Source: Candidatus Saccharimonadota bacterium (lineage in GTDB: Bacteria; Patescibacteriota; Saccharimonadia; Saccharimonadales; Saccharimonadaceae). Taken from it: a stretch of 51,796 nucleotides of DNA. Below, one piece after another: positions 8,035-48,446 of the stretch. Position 1 is the stretch's first letter, and each line of letters opens with the position of its first letter. The stretch is from positions 1 to 51,796 of the forward strand of contig WQXA01000003.1 in assembly GCA_009785095.1 (NCBI GenBank), read 5' to 3'. A model generated the notes under the pieces. That model saw only the letters and a list, made by a program, of their open reading frames with translations. It was not told where the DNA came from and ran no database searches. Position numbers and translations under genes: made by a program.

Positions 8035-8110
8035 GAGCATGATTATAACAGATATGTACAAAGCATGTAAAGTGCTGTAGAATGGATGTCATAGATAGGG
8101 GGGGGCTGTT

Positions 8111-22694: not shown

Positions 22695-23669
22695 ATGGCA
22701 ATAGGAAAACACGATATGACAACCCCCAACACAGATGGGGGGGGGTGGCGGTTTAGAGCTCAACGAGAAGATCCTCTAGCTGACGCTCCGCAAGGAGCTG
22801 ATGAACTAGTAAACTACTATCTCGGCTTTGCCAAACATAAAGACTACAAAGAAGTAAGTAGTTTAGGATTAGCCTCTAGTGAGGCTGCGGCGCAAGAGAC
22901 CCGATACCGGCAAGCCTGGACAGAGGCTCATTACATCAATGACCTTATGGACGCGGCTGCTGATAAAGAGAACACGACAGTAAATCAGATGTGGAGAATA
23001 CGGGAACGTTTAGCGCAAATATTAGCGAATGGTTTCTCAGCGAGACCAGATAGCGAAGGTGCTCCAGAAATTACCGATTCCATTATAAGCTTCGGCCAAT
23101 TGAGAGCTCTCGTACCCGAGGAACAACTGGCCAGATTATTACGCAAAGCCCACGACCCCGGCGGCGAAAACAGGTGCGTCGTCATCAGCCCAAGCCGTAT
23201 CCAGACGGTCGAGGAATTAGTGGCGAGTGGCGTCGAAGTCGGCGAATCCGCAGTAGATGTTTTGTCGTATTTTCGTGACAACGTAGAAACTGCACCGGAG
23301 GAAGACTTAGGCTACCAAGTTAGCATCATATCTACTCTTATTGATAGAAAGAGACCAGAGATCGACCACGCGCAAGCCGTTAAAGAAGGAACGCCCGGGT
23401 TTAGTGCCCTTATCACTATGCTTACCGAAATGAAAAAACAAGGCCCAGATGGAAATGGCCGGTATTTCAAAGAACTTATTCCCGGTGGCGGATTCGCAAT
23501 TATTTTATGTAGAGAAAAAGTTCTAGAAGAATCAAGAGAATCAAACTTGCGGGATTCGGTTTACGTTAGTATCAATCTCCGCGGCAGAATCGGGGTTTAC
23601 GGCTGCAGCGACAGCTTACGGGGCAATGCGTTACCTTCGGTCACAGAGACTCTAGAACCCGCTGCCTAA
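22695..23669 (+). CDS. hypothetical protein with poly-G9 tract near the N-terminus
   Basis: ATGGCAATAGGA...GATGGGGGGGGGTGG; tract at 22737-22745 is in frame at this length; TTGACT-17-TATAAC promoter at 22619-22647. Confidence 0.7.
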   Translation: MAIGKHDMTTPNTDGGGWRFRAQREDPLADAPQGADELVNYYLGFAKHKDYKEVSSLGLASSEAAAQETRYRQAWTEAHYINDLMDAAADKENTTVNQMWRIRERLAQILANGFSARPDSEGAPEITDSIISFGQLRALVPEEQLARLLRKAHDPGGENRCVVISPSRIQTVEELVASGVEVGESAVDVLSYFRDNVETAPEEDLGYQVSIISTLIDRKRPEIDHAQAVKEGTPGFSALITMLTEMKKQGPDGNGRYFKELIPGGGFAIILCREKVLEESRESNLRDSVYVSINLRGRIGVYGCSDSLRGNALPSVTETLEPAA

Positions 23670-25841: not shown

Positions 25842-26377
25842 CTAATCTAAACTTTTCGCAAAATTTCTCTGCAAAAGCTCTAGTGGTATGTGCAGTCGGT
25901 CTGATAGGGTGGCTTTACTATAATCGTTAACAATCTCAGCCTTTTCTACCAGATTTTTTAAAAACCAACGTGCCTCCGTGTCATAATGCTTATGACTACT
26001 TAGTCGCACCACCAAAACCACAGTTGTTATAGCTGATGACGCTAAAAGTCCATAATAATCATCTAGTCTCATATGAGCAACTCTCTCGATTCTATCACGG
26101 CTATCTTTACCATGATTAGATTTTGGCTCTATTATAGTGTCGTATAGTCCACATAGTCCACCTGCTAGGTAAACACAATTAACATCTTGATGGGGATACA
26201 TTCTAGTGGCAAGAGTTAGCTTAGGGCTTCTCTCCATGCCAGCTCTACAGACTAAAAGGGTTCTAGTGCGAGTACTCGGTACGGCTAAATCGCGGCTCTG
26301 GGGGGGGGTAGACCGGATAAACGCAAATTTGGGTTGACAGAAGGAAAGACTAACCGTGTGTCGCTACAACGAATCAT
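25842..26377 (-). pseudogene. low-molecular-weight protein tyrosine phosphatase-like gene, currently out of frame at a C9 (G9 on +) tract
   Basis: ATG at 26377 follows TTGATC-17-TATAAT by 6 nt, but C9 at 26300-26308 sends this frame to a stop. The other frame reads ...PSTRTLLVCRAGMERSPKLTLATR with a CX5R(S) P-loop and no start codon upstream of the Cys. One additional C joins them. Confidence 0.65.
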
Positions 26378-30542: not shown

Positions 30543-31892
30543 CTAAATTACGGGAGATTTTATACCGATCTGAAATATTGCTGACAAGCCACCTTCTTTA
30601 ATAAGCCGCTCTATATCTCTTTTGGCAAATAATTCACCATTAAAGCTGATGTATACACCGTTATCAAGCCTTTGGGCACAAGCCACGGCGTGCCCTAAAT
30701 TGAACAGGCCTTCAGAGGGCGTAAAGCCAGAGATTGGGGTTGTTGAACCCGTGAGAATAATTGTCTTTCGTTGGGGGGGGGTTAGTTTTTCATCTATGTA
30801 TTTGGCTAAGGCATCTATCTTAAACGTACCTGTCGTTATCACCAGTTTATCGTACGGGCTTTTTTCTACTACTTTTAATATTTTTGCAAAATCGGAATTC
30901 GTAAGTCTGCGGCTATCCTTAACAAACAGCTCGGTAAATTCTGCGTTCACATAATCGAGTGTCTCAATAAATTCCGGAATAATAGAAGTCTTGTTGGGAA
31001 CCACGGTGTCATAACGGCGCTCGTAATGAAAATCTATAGTTCCGCCAGTCATAATAAAATGAATTTTTGACTTGTCAACCATGTGCAATAATCTCCTTAT
31101 CCTTTCTAACAGTTTACCATTTTCAACGTAGAACAGCAAGAGTATCGGAACGGTTGCCAACGCATATGAGAGCAGAGTTCCCACATATATCCCCATAGTT
31201 GGATAGAAATAATACACTCCAACTGCGTAACATACAATCGAGATTGAGCCAATCGGTATATATTTCAGCAAGGCATGAAGGTGCATGACACTATACTTTC
31301 GGTGCACCATCAGCATGAGTGGCAAGGTTGTGGCGGGGAAAGAAGCAAGTAGTCCTGCCCAAGCTGAACCTGCTACCCCTGCGATAGTAGTGACTGTGGT
31401 AATGATTGAACCTGCTACAAGTGCTTTTATAACAATCGATTTAAAAGACGCTCTTACGTTTACCCCTGTTTGCATTTTTCTTATCTGGGTGAAAGGTACT
31501 GCTAGGAAGATGATCGCAAGTAGGGCGACTACTATACTAATGCCTAGATTGAATTTAATTTGCTCTAGTAGATAAGCAATGAGTAGAAAAGCAGCTGTTG
31601 CCGAGGTGACTGACAAGATCAAGGTGAACTTAGTAAATATCCTGGCTGCCAAATAGTAGGCGCCTATGAAAGCTAGGAATGTAACAATACCCACGATGTT
31701 GAATACGGCACTTTGAGAAGCAAATTCTGCGCCATTTTCTAATCCAAAAAAGAATAACGACAGAGCAACACCGACCGGATAACCTGAGAGTACGCTGGCA
31801 ATTTTGGGATTTATCCTCTCAAACAATTCCGACAGTATGACAACTGAGCTGACGGCAACCGTAAATTTTAGGATAAACATTAGATCAATCAT
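30543..31892 (-). CDS. multi-TM membrane protein fused to a C-terminal asparaginase-like domain; contains C9 (G9 on +) tract
   Basis: N-terminal ~270 aa hydrophobic; C-terminal KIHFIMTGGTIDFHYE...DKLVITTGTFKI resembles the asparaginase fold. Tract 30773-30781 encodes TPP, in frame. Confidence 0.6.
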   Translation of the reverse strand: MIDLMFILKFTVAVSSVVILSELFERINPKIASVLSGYPVGVALSLFFFGLENGAEFASQSAVFNIVGIVTFLAFIGAYYLAARIFTKFTLILSVTSATAAFLLIAYLLEQIKFNLGISIVVALLAIIFLAVPFTQIRKMQTGVNVRASFKSIVIKALVAGSIITTVTTIAGVAGSAWAGLLASFPATTLPLMLMVHRKYSVMHLHALLKYIPIGSISIVCYAVGVYYFYPTMGIYVGTLLSYALATVPILLLFYVENGKLLERIRRLLHMVDKSKIHFIMTGGTIDFHYERRYDTVVPNKTSIIPEFIETLDYVNAEFTELFVKDSRRLTNSDFAKILKVVEKSPYDKLVITTGTFKIDALAKYIDEKLTPPQRKTIILTGSTTPISGFTPSEGLFNLGHAVACAQRLDNGVYISFNGELFAKRDIERLIKEGGLSAIFQIGIKSPVI

Positions 31893-43580: not shown

Positions 43581-43652
43581 TGCATTGTACTACAATTTCT
43601 TCTACATGACAAGCTGGACTTTTTTGTCTAAACGGTGTATAATGCCTCGGTT

Positions 43653-46600
43653 ATGTCGGAGAAAGTCATCAGGGTTCGCGGCGCGCGCGAACATAATCTA
43701 AAGAACATCAATGTCGAGATTCCGCGCGATAAATTTGTCGTCATCACCGGTCTCAGCGGATCGGGCAAATCTTCTTTGGCATTCGATACAATTTACGCCG
43801 AAGGCCAGCGTCGCTACGTCGAATCGCTCAGCTCCTACGCCCGGCAATTCTTAGGCCAGATGGAAAAACCCGACGTTGACCAAATCGATGGCCTCAGCCC
43901 GGCTATCTCGATCGATCAGAAATCGGCCAGTCGGAATCCGCGCTCGACGGTGGCGACAGTGACAGAAATCTACGATTATTTACGATTATTGTTCGCGCGT
44001 ATCGGCATCCCGCATTGTCCGGCCTGTGGCCGCGAGGTTCAGCGCCGCACGCCGCAAGCGATTATTGATGAGATCATGAATCTCGAAGGGCGACGCGTCT
44101 ACATCGGCGCGCCTCTGGCTAAGCAAAAGAAAGGCGAATTCGCGCACATTCCTGATCAATATATGGCTAAGGGATTTGCCCGCGCCCGCGTCGACGGCGT
44201 GATTTATGCGCTCGATGAGTGGCCAGAGCTCGACAAGCAACACAAGCACGACATCGAACTCATCGTTGATCGTTTGGTCATTCAACCGGACGCGATTTCG
44301 CGCATCACCCAATCGGTCGAAACGGCGCTCGAACTCGGCGGCGGCACGGTCGAAATAGTCGAGTTAAGTTCAGACGCGGTCGCTGCCTCGCGTAACATTT
44401 CTTCCGAATCGGACTTGACGCGAAAAATGTCATACACTGGTCGTCCGTCAGAACCGTCGCAGAGCGACGAACCTGTCGGCGACGTCAGGAATATACATTT
44501 TTCGACATCAAATCTGGTAAATGATTCAGAAGAAAGTCACGCGGGCGCGCTTGCTAGTGAGATTATTCATGTCTTTTCCACTTCTTACGCTTGCGTCGAC
44601 CACCCCGACGAGCAGATTCCCGAGCTCGAGCCGCGGCTGTTTTCTTTCAACGCGCCGTTTGGGGCTTGTCCGATTTGCACCGGTCTCGGTTCGCGGTTGG
44701 AGGTTGATCCCGACCTTGCTCTGAACTTGAATTTGACTATCGCCGAGGGGGCGATTCGGCCGTTCAATCGCGTCAACGTCGATGCTTGGTGGATGAAGAA
44801 ATTGGCGGCGGTTGGTCAAAAACACGGTTTTGATCTGCGCACGTTGGTGAAAGATCTGTCTGATGACGCCAAGCAGAAAATCCTCTATGGCACGGGCGCG
44901 CAGAAATACACCGTGACGCTCGGCAACGGTCGCGATTATGATACGACGTACGAGGGCGTGATTCCGAATCTGGAGCGGCGCTGGAAGGAGACCGATAGCG
45001 ATTTCATGCGGCGCGACATTGAGCGTTTTATGCGTGAGCGCGAATGTATGGTTTGTCACGGCACGCGTCTCAAACCGGTCGTGGCCGCCGTCACTATCCA
45101 AGGTCTAAGCATCGTCGACATTTGTAATCTCGGTGTTGATGATGCGCTCGATCTGTTCAAGAATAAAATCAAGTTGACCGAACAAGAGGAATTTATTGCT
45201 CGCCAAATTTTCAAAGAAATCATCGCCCGACTCGGTTTCATGAGTGATGTCGGGTTGGATTATCTCGAGCTCGGGCGCGCGGCTAATACGCTGAGCGGCG
45301 GCGAAGCGCAAAGAATCCGCCTAGCTACCCAGATCGGTAGCGGCCTGCAGGGCGTCCTTTATGTCTTGGACGAGCCGTCGATCGGCCTGCATCAACGTGA
45401 CAATGAGCGGCTGATCGCCACGCTCAAACATCTGCGCGATCTCGGCAACACGGTTTTGGTGGTCGAACACGACGAGGAAACCATTCGCGGCAGCGATTAT
45501 TTGCTCGACATCGGGCCGGGCGCGGGCGAACACGGCGGCAAAATTGTGGCCGAAGGCACGCCGGCCGAAGTCGCCAAAAATCCCGATTCGATCACCGGTC
45601 AATATTTGAGTGGCAAGAAAAAAATCGCCGTGCCAAAGAAACGCCGCACCATCGACCCGAAACGTCAATTGATCATCCGCGGCGCGCGCGAGCATAACCT
45701 GAAAAAGATCGACGTGGCTTTTCCGCTGGGCGTCCTGAACGTTGTGACCGGTGTTAGCGGCTCGGGCAAATCGACGTTGGTGAACGACATTTTGAGCAAG
45801 GAACTAGCGGCTCGTCTCAACCGCGCTCAGGCTGTGGCCGGGGCGCATGAGAGCATCGAGGGCATCCAATTCCTAGACAAAGTCATCACCATCGATCAAT
45901 CGCCGATCGGTCGCACACCGCGCTCGAATCCGGCGACTTACACCGGAGTTTTCACGGCAATTCGCGAGCTGTTTGCGGTCACGCCCGAGGCCAACATTCG
46001 CGGCTACAAAGCCGGTCGGTTTTCTTTCAACGTGCGCGGCGGTCGCTGCGAAAATTGCCAAGGCGACGGCGTCATCAAAATCGAGATGCATTTTCTACCC
46101 GACATTTATGTGACCTGTGAAGAATGCAAAGGCAAGCGCTACAATCGCGAGGCGCTCGAGATCAAATACAAAGGCAAAACCATCGCCGACGTGCTCAAAA
46201 TGACGGTCGAAACCGCGGCCGAGTTTTTCAAAAACGTGCCGGCCGTGGCGCGGAAATTGGACACTTTGGTCGAGGTGGGCTTGGGCTACATCACGCTCGG
46301 CCAACCGGCCACGACATTTAGCGGCGGCGAAGCCCAGCGCATAAAACTAGCCACCGAATTATCGCGCCGCGCCACGGGAAAAACTCTCTATATTTTGGAC
46401 GAGCCGACGACCGGCCTGCACGCCGACGACGTCAAACGTCTGCTGGCGGTGCTAAACGCCCTGGTCGAAACCGGCAATTCAATGATCATTATCGAGCACA
46501 ACGTCGACGTTATCAAATGTGCCGACCACATCCTCGACCTCGGCCCGGACGGCGGTTTGAATGGCGGCTACGTCATCGCCAAAGGCACGCCCGAGGAAGT

Positions 46601-46658
46601 GGCGGAGGTCAAGAAATCTTATACTGGGCAGTATCTGAAACAAACATTAAAACTCTGA
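43653..46658 (+). CDS. uvrA: excinuclease ABC subunit A with in-frame palindromic insertion
   Basis: [71 protein letters not shown] 9 nt before ATG. Confidence 0.97.
44390..44542 (+). repeat. palindromic element in frame in uvrA, same family as pcrA 18121-18283
   Basis: gcgtaacatttcttccgaatc / gattcagaagaaagtcacgc arms; peptide [42 protein letters not shown]. Confidence 0.9.
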
Positions 46659-46665
46659 TTATGAC

Positions 46666-46684
46666 TGCAGGAACGGTTCCTGCA
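46666..46684. repeat. mini-palindrome TGCAGGAACGGTTCCTGCA
   Basis: 9-bp arms around one G. Confidence 0.8.
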
Positions 46685-46747
46685 AACGAAACGATTCTAT
46701 ATTCTATACTGGACAATATTTAAAAGTTGTGCTACGATATTAACAAT

Positions 46748-47336
46748 ATGAGAACCAGACCGGGGTTTGAGAGTGATGCGGATTATGAAGAGTGGCTGCG
46801 AGATTCCGGAACACCCCCGGGAGATTTTTTGGACAGTGTTCTTGCTGATTTTGATGCAAATTCTTACCCGCTCGATTTCGAAGAATATCTAAAGCTATAT
46901 CGCCAGCGTATGGGGGGGGGGAACGAACAGCGGTATCAACTGTTATGGGTATGCGCTAGGGACTACAACTGAAGCATGGCAGACAGGGTCATTAGATATA
47001 TTTAGATTCCCAGGGTCAGCTGCTGCCGGGCACTCTTTAAGATACGAGATACCCCCTGGAGGTTTGACGGACGACGCAATAATGAATAGGTTCATCGCGG
47101 ATATAGGCTTTTTTGGGTTTGCAATTTCAACTTCCGCAAAAGCTATGCAGGTTGTAATGTGTGTTCAGCATGATCCAGACGACGGGGGCTTCAATGGCTT
47201 TCACGTTGCTCGACGTGATCGATGTGGAAGATGGTCTCACAAGCCAGGTTGGGTGGGGGCTCCCGAACGCATCGAAATAGTTGGTGGTAGGGTAGGTCGC
47301 TTTTCTGTCATAGGGCAAGTAGGCATAACCAGATAG
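46748..47336 (+). pseudogene. putative cysteine-peptidase/amidase-like protein, currently out of frame at a G10 tract (truncated product 46748-46972)
   Basis: From ATG 46748 to G10 at 46912-46921, then stop at 46972. One base removed opens ...GGGTNSGINCYGYALGTTTEAW...GFHVARRDRCGRWSHKPGW... to 47336. Promoter TGGACA-17-TACGAT at 46710-46738. Confidence 0.65.
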
Positions 47337-47341
47337 GGGAC

Positions 47342-47362
47342 TTGCAAGCTCCGTCCTTGCAA
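47342..47362. repeat. mini-palindrome TTGCAAG-CTCCGTC-CTTGCAA, same as in mnmA
   Basis: Identical 21 bp to 19569-19589 and 19644-19664. Confidence 0.85.
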
Positions 47363-47378: not shown

Positions 47379-47397
47379 TGCAGGAATGGTTCCTGCA
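47379..47397. repeat. mini-palindrome TGCAGGAATGGTTCCTGCA
   Basis: 8-bp arms; near-identical to 46666-46684. Confidence 0.8.
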
Positions 47398-47456
47398 AGC
47401 GCTGACGCCATCTTTTCAGGGTTGATCATTTAGAATTATTGTGATATAATATTAGC

Positions 47457-47966
47457 ATGATTGAAGTGCGAAGAGCCACCCGGACTACAGAACAAGGGAC
47501 GCTTTTTGCGGAGCATGTTCTTGAGCGGGGGGGGGTAGAGTATCAAATTGATATCACCGCTCTGATCTCTTTAAAAGAAAAGGTAGGTAGTGAGGCCAAG
47601 TCGTACATAGATGACCTGGTTGAGATATTACGATGTGTCCGGGAAGAGCGCAGCATGATGTTTGCCGATGAGGATGAGTATTTCTTGAAAATAATATTTT
47701 TCGAAACGATAGGAGCAGTTAAAGATCGTCACGATCAAAGTGCAATCCTTAATTTTTTCAGATCATATATGAGCAGTGACGATGAACCACCGGATGCACC
47801 CGGTCGCCTAGTACCGCATGTTGTTACAAGCAATCGCGATCCAAATAAAAGATCTACAACAAAGCATCCTGCTGCTCAGACTGCATTACAACTCGCAGGT
47901 GCAGGAGGCTTACCTATGAGGCGAAAACCACCCAAAGGTGATCGCGCCCTTGCTTACAAGGACTAA
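47457..47966 (+). CDS. hypothetical protein with poly-G9 near the N-terminus
   Basis: TTGATC-17-TATAAT, ATG 6 nt later; GAGCGGGGGGGGGTAGAG at 47523-47540 is in frame. Confidence 0.65.
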   Translation: MIEVRRATRTTEQGTLFAEHVLERGGVEYQIDITALISLKEKVGSEAKSYIDDLVEILRCVREERSMMFADEDEYFLKIIFFETIGAVKDRHDQSAILNFFRSYMSSDDEPPDAPGRLVPHVVTSNRDPNKRSTTKHPAAQTALQLAGAGGLPMRRKPPKGDRALAYKD

Positions 47967-48068: not shown

Positions 48069-48446
48069 ATGAGGAAATACGCCATCTTTTTTGCTCGTTG
48101 GGTGTTGACGTCGCTCGGTCTCTGGATCGTGGTGCGTCTTTTTGGGCACGAAGCCGATGTCACTGTCGCGCAGTCGGTCGCTACTTTCTTGTTGGCTGGC
48201 CTGATTTTTGCGTTCATTAATTCGATCTTAAAACCGGTCATCACCACTTTGTCGCTGCCGTTCGTTTTGGTCACGCTGGGGCTGTTCATGCTGATCATCA
48301 ATGGCCTGATGGTTTGGCTGACGATTGCTCTGTCGCCGAATCTCCAAATGACTTTTGGTTGGGCGATCGTTTCCGGAATCGTCCTAAGTCTGGTAAACTA
48401 TTTAATGAGTGAGATCGATGATATAGGGATTAAGGAGAAGAAATAA
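48069..48446 (+). CDS. small multi-TM protein of the phage-holin-4 (YvlD-like) family
   Basis: Four hydrophobic segments, FINSILKPVITTLSLPFVLVTLGLFMLIINGLMVWL. Confidence 0.75.
   Translation: MRKYAIFFARWVLTSLGLWIVVRLFGHEADVTVAQSVATFLLAGLIFAFINSILKPVITTLSLPFVLVTLGLFMLIINGLMVWLTIALSPNLQMTFGWAIVSGIVLSLVNYLMSEIDDIGIKEKK

What the first reader, a model, noticed from the sequence alone, without database searches (positions are those of the whole stretch)
46748..47336. Putative secreted or toxin-like cysteine hydrolase gene split by a G10 tract
From ATG 46748, G10 leads to an early stop (46972). Deleting one G opens a continuous frame to 47336: ...RQRMGGGTNSGINCYGYALGTTTEAWQTGSLDIFRFPG...GGFNGFHVARRDRCGRWSHKPGWVGAPERIEIVGG... 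The NCYGYAL and HVARRD..G.WSHKPGW blocks look like the Cys and His blocks of a papain/NlpC-like fold. The catalytic part is made only in the shifted state.
Basis: partly seen in the sequence, partly recalled or inferred. Interest (0 to 1): 0.8.

Follow-up and report, generated by a model that had tools for sequence, protein, structure and literature searches.

The report
Saccharibacterial gene switched by poly-G tract
A small gene in an uncultured Saccharibacterium is cut out of frame by a run of ten Gs, and this run is one of about 90 such runs in the genome, which suggests that these tiny, probably host-dependent bacteria use a large set of random on/off gene switches that I could not find described for them before.

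Summary
A G10 tract at 46912-46921 ends the ATG46748 frame after 74 aa, while the frame ending at TAG 47336 is open from the tract onward and has no start of its own before the Cys. Both halves separately match the same intact, tract-free proteins in related species, so this is one gene, out of frame at the present tract length.

The larger finding is outside the coordinates. G and C run lengths in this genome are bimodal: almost none of 7-8, then 87 runs of 9-13 in 703 kb. Same-genus relatives show the same pattern. The tracts lie early in coding frames or between -35 and -10 hexamers, and mark genes with few homologues in sister species (16/82 against 386/549). Best reading: a contingency (phase-variation) locus, assembled in its OFF state, in a Saccharibacterial lineage with a dense poly-G phasome.

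'Secreted or toxin-like' has no support. A Cys-His hydrolase (DUF7689-like) is plausible but unproven: Cys and His are conserved, the Pfam score is below cut-off and the fold prediction failed. Switching itself was not observed, because no reads were available.

The parts
46710..46738 (+). Promoter-like site TGGACA-17-TACGAT, 9 nt before the ATG (nearly leaderless)
   Evidence: consensus scan; not tested functionally
46748..46911 (+). 5' part of the gene (55 codons including the Met that shares the first G of the tract)
   Evidence: matches the N-terminal part of intact homologues L179 and L002
46912..46921 (+). G10 tract, proposed slippage switch
46970..46972 (+). Premature TGA of the ATG frame at G10 (74 aa product)
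46922..47336 (+). 3' part of the gene, open frame, DUF7689-like Cys/His protein, stop TAG 47334-47336
46941..46943 (+). Codon of the conserved Cys (NC motif), candidate nucleophile
   Evidence: conserved in all three homologous sequences that cover it
47202..47204 (+). Codon of the conserved His (FHVARRD), candidate catalytic His
   Evidence: invariant in four sequences
46667..46683 (.). Palindromic repeat GCAGGAACGGTTCCTGC after uvrA (11 copies of the family in 419 kb)
47342..47362 (.). Palindromic repeat TTGCAAGCTCCGTCCTTGCAA just after the stop (28 copies in 419 kb, 1 in the fetched half of G001, 0 in the fetched part of G002)
47380..47396 (.). Second copy of the GCAGGAAYGGTTCCTGC palindrome; the gene lies between two copies
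47457..47966 (+). Neighbouring orphan gene (169 aa) with its own promoter-like site (47422-47450) and its own G9 tract at 47527-47535, in frame
43635..46658 (+). uvrA, left border of the variable interval
48069..48446 (+). Phage_holin_4_2-like membrane protein, right border of the variable interval

Best explanation
The locus is a poly-G contingency (phase-variation) gene, caught with its tract at a length that puts the 3' two thirds out of frame (OFF). Slipped-strand mispairing during replication would change the tract length and reversibly switch production of a protein of about 194 aa. It is one of roughly 90 such tracts in this Saccharibacterial genome, which fall into translational switches (tract early in the ORF) and transcriptional switches (tract in the promoter spacer). 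The protein is probably a soluble Cys-His hydrolase-like protein distantly related to DUF7689 (about 0.45); its target is unknown. My guess is an effector-like or host-interaction role, because the tract-bearing genes here are soluble, fast-evolving and lineage-specific. Shown: the split, the single-gene nature, the genome-wide tract set and its placement. Inferred: slippage in living cells, enzymatic activity, role.
For: Run lengths are bimodal for G and C but not for A and T in three congeneric genomes. Both halves match one intact homologue, with no other lesion. Among classified coding tracts, length 9 is 16 ON/2 OFF and 10 or more is 6 ON/8 OFF (p=0.008), as expected if frames switch with length. 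Tracts sit in promoter spacers in 10/66 (G000) and 11/30 (G001) cases against 2.2% for random positions (p=1.6e-6 and 1.9e-11). In-ORF tracts cluster in the first third of the ORF (25 of 37). Tract genes lack homologues in sister species: 16/82 against 386/549, p=1.6e-18. A homologous pair carries a tract at the same early site with different length and state: L021 C10 in frame, L040 C8 out of frame. MutS is not detected in any of the 40 relatives; G000 has one weak hit.
Against: No read-level or strain-level length variation could be examined, so switching was not observed. Only distant homologues exist and none has a tract at this site, so tract conservation in this gene itself is not shown. 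A single slipped tract in a recently acquired gene would look the same. DUF7689 is below cut-off and the fold prediction failed. Lack of MutS is shared with relatives that have no tracts, so it does not explain the lineage pattern.
Confidence: 0.8

Rival explanations
1. Plain pseudogene: a single fixed frameshift in a dispensable, recently acquired gene.
For: The gene is absent from same-genus genomes and is out of frame; homologues lack the tract.
Against: No other lesion in about 190 codons; conserved residues kept; the lesion lies in a G10 tract in a genome with about 90 similar tracts, most of the coding ones in frame.
Confidence: 0.1
2. Assembly or sequencing error in homopolymer length.
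For: Homopolymers are error-prone; the genome is a draft of 38 contigs, 82% complete.
Against: Errors would blur lengths around existing runs, not create a gap at 7-8 with a mode at 9-10 only for G and C; the pattern recurs in other genomes of the genus, and tracts are placed in promoters and early in ORFs. An error at this tract alone cannot be excluded and would only change the recorded state.
Confidence: 0.04
3. Recoding: the tract is a slippery site where RNA polymerase or the ribosome slips, so a fraction of the product is always full length, without switching at the DNA level.
For: Long homopolymer runs can promote slippage (general knowledge). A different gene is out of frame at C8 in both G001 and G002 (frames read by hand from the DNA).
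Against: Tracts in promoter spacers cannot act by recoding; shift directions differ between genes; lengths vary between homologous sites.
Confidence: 0.06

Closest known systems
Poly-G/poly-C contingency loci of Campylobacter jejuni (PMC4965091: 29 loci with tracts of 7 or more in NCTC11168; PMC6321876, PMC8355987; abstracts seen)
   Same: G/C homopolymer tracts of about 8-11 within reading frames or intergenic, ON/OFF by tract length, dozens of genes
   Different: Different phylum; about 129 tracts of 8 or more per Mb here against roughly 18 per Mb (29 in about 1.64 Mb, genome size from general knowledge). Campylobacter loci mostly modify surface structures; tract genes here are depleted of membrane segments (3/41 against 116/335) and mostly orphan
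Promoter-spacer homopolymer switches, as known from Neisseria, Bordetella and others (general knowledge)
   Same: Tract between -35 and -10 hexamers, so that length would set promoter strength
   Different: The gene in question is of the coding type, not this type
Pfam DUF7689 (PF24738)
   Same: Alignment over residues 9-113, spanning the NC, His and S-x-K-x-G-W blocks
   Different: Score 15.2 bits against a cut-off of 22.6; the other homologues do not match it
Hypervariable repeat gene of a Gracilibacterium (PMC6851277)
   Same: Repeat-driven variation in a CPR genome
   Different: One gene with in-frame 9-mer repeats changing protein sequence, not homopolymer ON/OFF switching

Membership tests
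Homopolymer contingency (phase-variable) locus | G/C tract of hypermutable length in ORF or promoter | tested here: met
   G10 at 46912-46921; that it is hypermutable was not measured
Homopolymer contingency (phase-variable) locus | Change of tract length toggles an otherwise intact frame | tested here: met
   Both sides open and homologous to one intact protein
Homopolymer contingency (phase-variable) locus | Tracts over-represented beyond chance across the genome | tested here: met
   Bimodal run lengths
Homopolymer contingency (phase-variable) locus | Length polymorphism among cells or strains | not testable with these tools
   No reads or conspecific genomes; only between species and at other genes
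Homopolymer contingency (phase-variable) locus | Reversible switching of expression | not testable with these tools
   Needs culture or reads
DUF7689 (PF24738) | Score above the curated cut-off | tested here: not met
   15.2 against 22.6 bits
Papain/NlpC-like cysteine hydrolase | Conserved Cys and His in that order | tested here: met
   NC in three of three, His in four of four sequences
Papain/NlpC-like cysteine hydrolase | Papain-like fold | tested here: inconclusive
   Single-sequence model, mean pLDDT 42; no PDB sequence match
Secreted toxin | Signal sequence or delivery domain, linked immunity gene | tested here: not met
   No hydrophobic N-terminus; homologues' neighbours are housekeeping genes; neighbour 47457 is not found beside them. 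A route without signal sequence is not excluded

The most novel reading that the evidence does not exclude
A lineage of Saccharibacteria carries one of the densest homopolymer phasomes seen, and it switches not surface antigens but a pool of soluble, lineage-specific, effector-like proteins, so that each epibiont cell presents a random subset of effectors to its bacterial host.
Probability: 0.3. Interest if true: 0.85.

Novelty: new variant of a known kind. Interest (0 to 1): 0.62.

Why it matters
Saccharibacteria are probably host-dependent bacteria with very small genomes. If about 90 genes switch at random, host range, phage resistance and population structure in these organisms would rest partly on bet-hedging, and draft genomes would record OFF genes as pseudogenes or miss them. 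The tract also gives a sequence flag for the fast-evolving, interaction-type genes of uncultured lineages. My searches of the held literature found no description of homopolymer phase variation in Saccharibacteria; that library is incomplete.

Tried and rejected
Phage or plasmid origin: no match. Viral relatives by peptide pattern: none. PHROGs, PADLOC, NCBIfam for the gene: none. Pfam DUF7689 across 295 genomes of the family: nothing, and the control also failed to ring, so uninformative. Named relatives by peptide pattern in GTDB genomes: none. ADP-ribosylglycohydrolase hit (E 0.043): rejected, covers 54 residues and is below cut-off. Homology between this gene and the tract-broken gene at the same place in G001: similar by eye, but hhalign gave probability 0.1% with very thin profiles, so not claimed. 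Immunity partner next door: gene 47457 has only weak partial relatives. Lack of MutS as the cause: shared by tract-free relatives.

Full report
1. The observation. The sequence at 46748-47336 is as described. From ATG 46748 the frame runs through G10 (46912-46921) and stops at 46970-46972 after 74 residues. The frame that ends at TAG 47334-47336 is open from the tract for 140 residues. It has no start codon upstream and its first internal start, TTG 47064, lies after the Cys codon. So at this tract length the Cys-containing part is not made from any start I can see.

2. One gene, not two. Intact homologues exist in another genus of the same family: G008 (L002, 199 aa) and G330 (L179, two tandem copies, one cut by a contig end). 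I kept the two halves apart. The 5' half aligns to the N-terminal part of L179 (score 47, 0 of 1000 shuffles as high) and of L002 (42, 0 of 1000 against its N-terminal part, 2 of 1000 against the whole protein). The 3' half aligns to the rest (128 and 78, 0 of 1000 each). The homologous loci have no G or C run of six or more. They sit among housekeeping genes (a gene that looks like ribosomal protein L25, an ABC transporter; my reading of the translations), not beside uvrA and not beside a relative of 47457, so the gene has moved and has no fixed partner. It was not found in the two same-genus genomes, and in 380 genomes drawn across the phylum only the genome itself matched.

3. The protein. 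Cys (NC), His and a following S-x-K-x-x-W block are conserved. Pfam gives DUF7689 at 15.2 bits, below the 22.6 cut-off, and the homologues do not match it. No solved structure matches, and a single-sequence model is unusable. A Cys-His hydrolase is the best guess, not a result. There is no hydrophobic N-terminus. A promoter-like site lies 9 nt before the ATG, so the gene is probably expressed on its own, nearly leaderless.

4. The genome. The window is a whole contig of a 781 kb draft genome. Contigs named Candidatus Saccharibacteria match its relatives G001 and G002 and in part itself, in runs of neighbouring genes at about 40-65% amino-acid identity, so I take it to be Saccharibacterial; the genome itself carries no name here. 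In 703 kb of it, G runs fall from 12 of length 6 to 1 of length 7 and 2 of length 8, then rise to 32, 22, 4 and 1 at lengths 9, 10, 11 and 13. C runs fall from 10 of length 6 to 0 and 2, then 17, 10 and 1 at 9-11. A and T runs simply decay. Two other species of the genus show the same bimodality (50 tracts of 8 or more in 668 kb, 36 in 418 kb). Among relatives, a handful of other genera have many G9 matches, most have few or none, and other families of the order are nearly free of them.

5. Where the tracts are. Two classes stand out. In the first, the tract is inside an ORF in the G-sense, mostly in its first third (25 of 37). With rough rules, tracts of 9 were 16 in frame and 2 out, and longer tracts 6 in and 8 out; these rules also% of random positions OFF. 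In the second, the tract fills the spacer between TTGACA-like and TATAAT-like hexamers: 10 of 66 tracts in G000 and 11 of 30 in G001 against 2.2% of random positions. Examples are TTGACA-aatttc-G10-TATGAT (L016:4457) and TTGACT-tttttc-G9-TATACT (L029:18458). The promoter class also occurs in many gut bacteria outside Saccharibacteria, so it is not unique to this lineage.

6. What the tracts mark. Tract-associated genes have far fewer homologues in sister species than other ORFs: 16/82 against 386/549 (p=1.6e-18), and the same direction in five other comparisons. ORF calls were simple longest-ORF calls, which adds noise to both groups, and some tract ORFs are antisense or spurious; spurious ORFs would also lack homologues, so the size of the effect is uncertain. 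Tract genes are depleted of membrane-like segments: 3/41 against 116/335, p=1.5e-4. Of 52 scanned proteins most have no Pfam match; the rest are mixed: methyltransferases, a short-chain dehydrogenase, NUDIX, GDSL lipase, M66 peptidase, a reverse transcriptase. This differs from the surface-structure bias of the classical phasomes.

7. The same place in a relative. In G001 the order exoI, uvrA, variable interval, holin-like gene, solute-binding protein is kept. Its uvrA-holin interval holds other genes, among them one broken by a C8 tract 121 nt after its ATG. An ortholog with C8 lies at another place in G002. Both are out of frame at the tract. These proteins also have a Cys and a His in order, but a profile comparison did not link them to the gene here.

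8. Evidence of change across species. A homologous pair has the tract at the same early site with different lengths: C10 in frame in G000 (L021:15670), C8 out of frame in G001 (L040:5533). Another pair keeps a tract at the same site with G10 and G11, both in frame through neighbouring changes. The pairs are distant (26% and 47% identity).

9. Judgement. The gene is best read as a phase-variable locus recorded in its OFF state (0.8). The statement about mechanism rests on the pattern of tracts, not on observed switching. Mismatch-repair MutS was not detected in relatives, and only a weak hit occurs here; this fits easy slippage but is shared with tract-free relatives. The toxin reading is dropped. 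The general kind is well known from Campylobacter and Neisseria; what is new, as far as the held papers show, is its presence, density and unusual cargo in Saccharibacteria.

Noticed in passing
window 8098-8105, 22737-22745, 26300-26308, 30773-30781, 47527-47535: Five further G8-G9 tracts in the window: in a 5' leader 5 nt before an ATG, early in a 324 aa orphan ORF, intergenic, antisense to an asparaginase-like gene, and early in the 169 aa neighbour.
   Followed up: partly
L022:5640-9953 (G000:C12): A gatA reading frame appears to carry an inserted alpha/beta-hydrolase-like domain with a G10 tract near its end that puts the rest of GatA out of frame; a methyltransferase gene between gatA and gatB is also out of frame at a G10.
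   Followed up: partly
window 47342-47362, 46667-46683, 47380-47396 and many loci: Two families of short palindromic repeats (TTGCAAGCTCCGTCCTTGCAA, 28 copies, and GCAGGAAYGGTTCCTGC, 11 copies in 419 kb); the first is nearly absent from same-genus relatives. The gene studied lies between copies.
   Followed up: partly
L190:4396-5009 (G001:C15), L055:731-1350 (G002:C10): Orthologous genes in two species, each out of frame at a C8 tract, with conserved Cys and His in the 3' part; in G001 it lies at the same place after uvrA.
   Followed up: partly
L014:8841 and L029:18458: Homologous genes (28% identity) in two species both have a tract in the promoter spacer, but one is poly-C and the other poly-G, suggesting independent origin.
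   Followed up: no
G000:C1:38598-39149: Weak MutS_V match (31.4 bits) inside a 1169 aa open frame in a genome group otherwise without MutS.
   Followed up: no
   Followed up: no
alignment A3 members: One tract-associated gene encodes a reverse transcriptase with matches to defence-related RT families.
   Followed up: no
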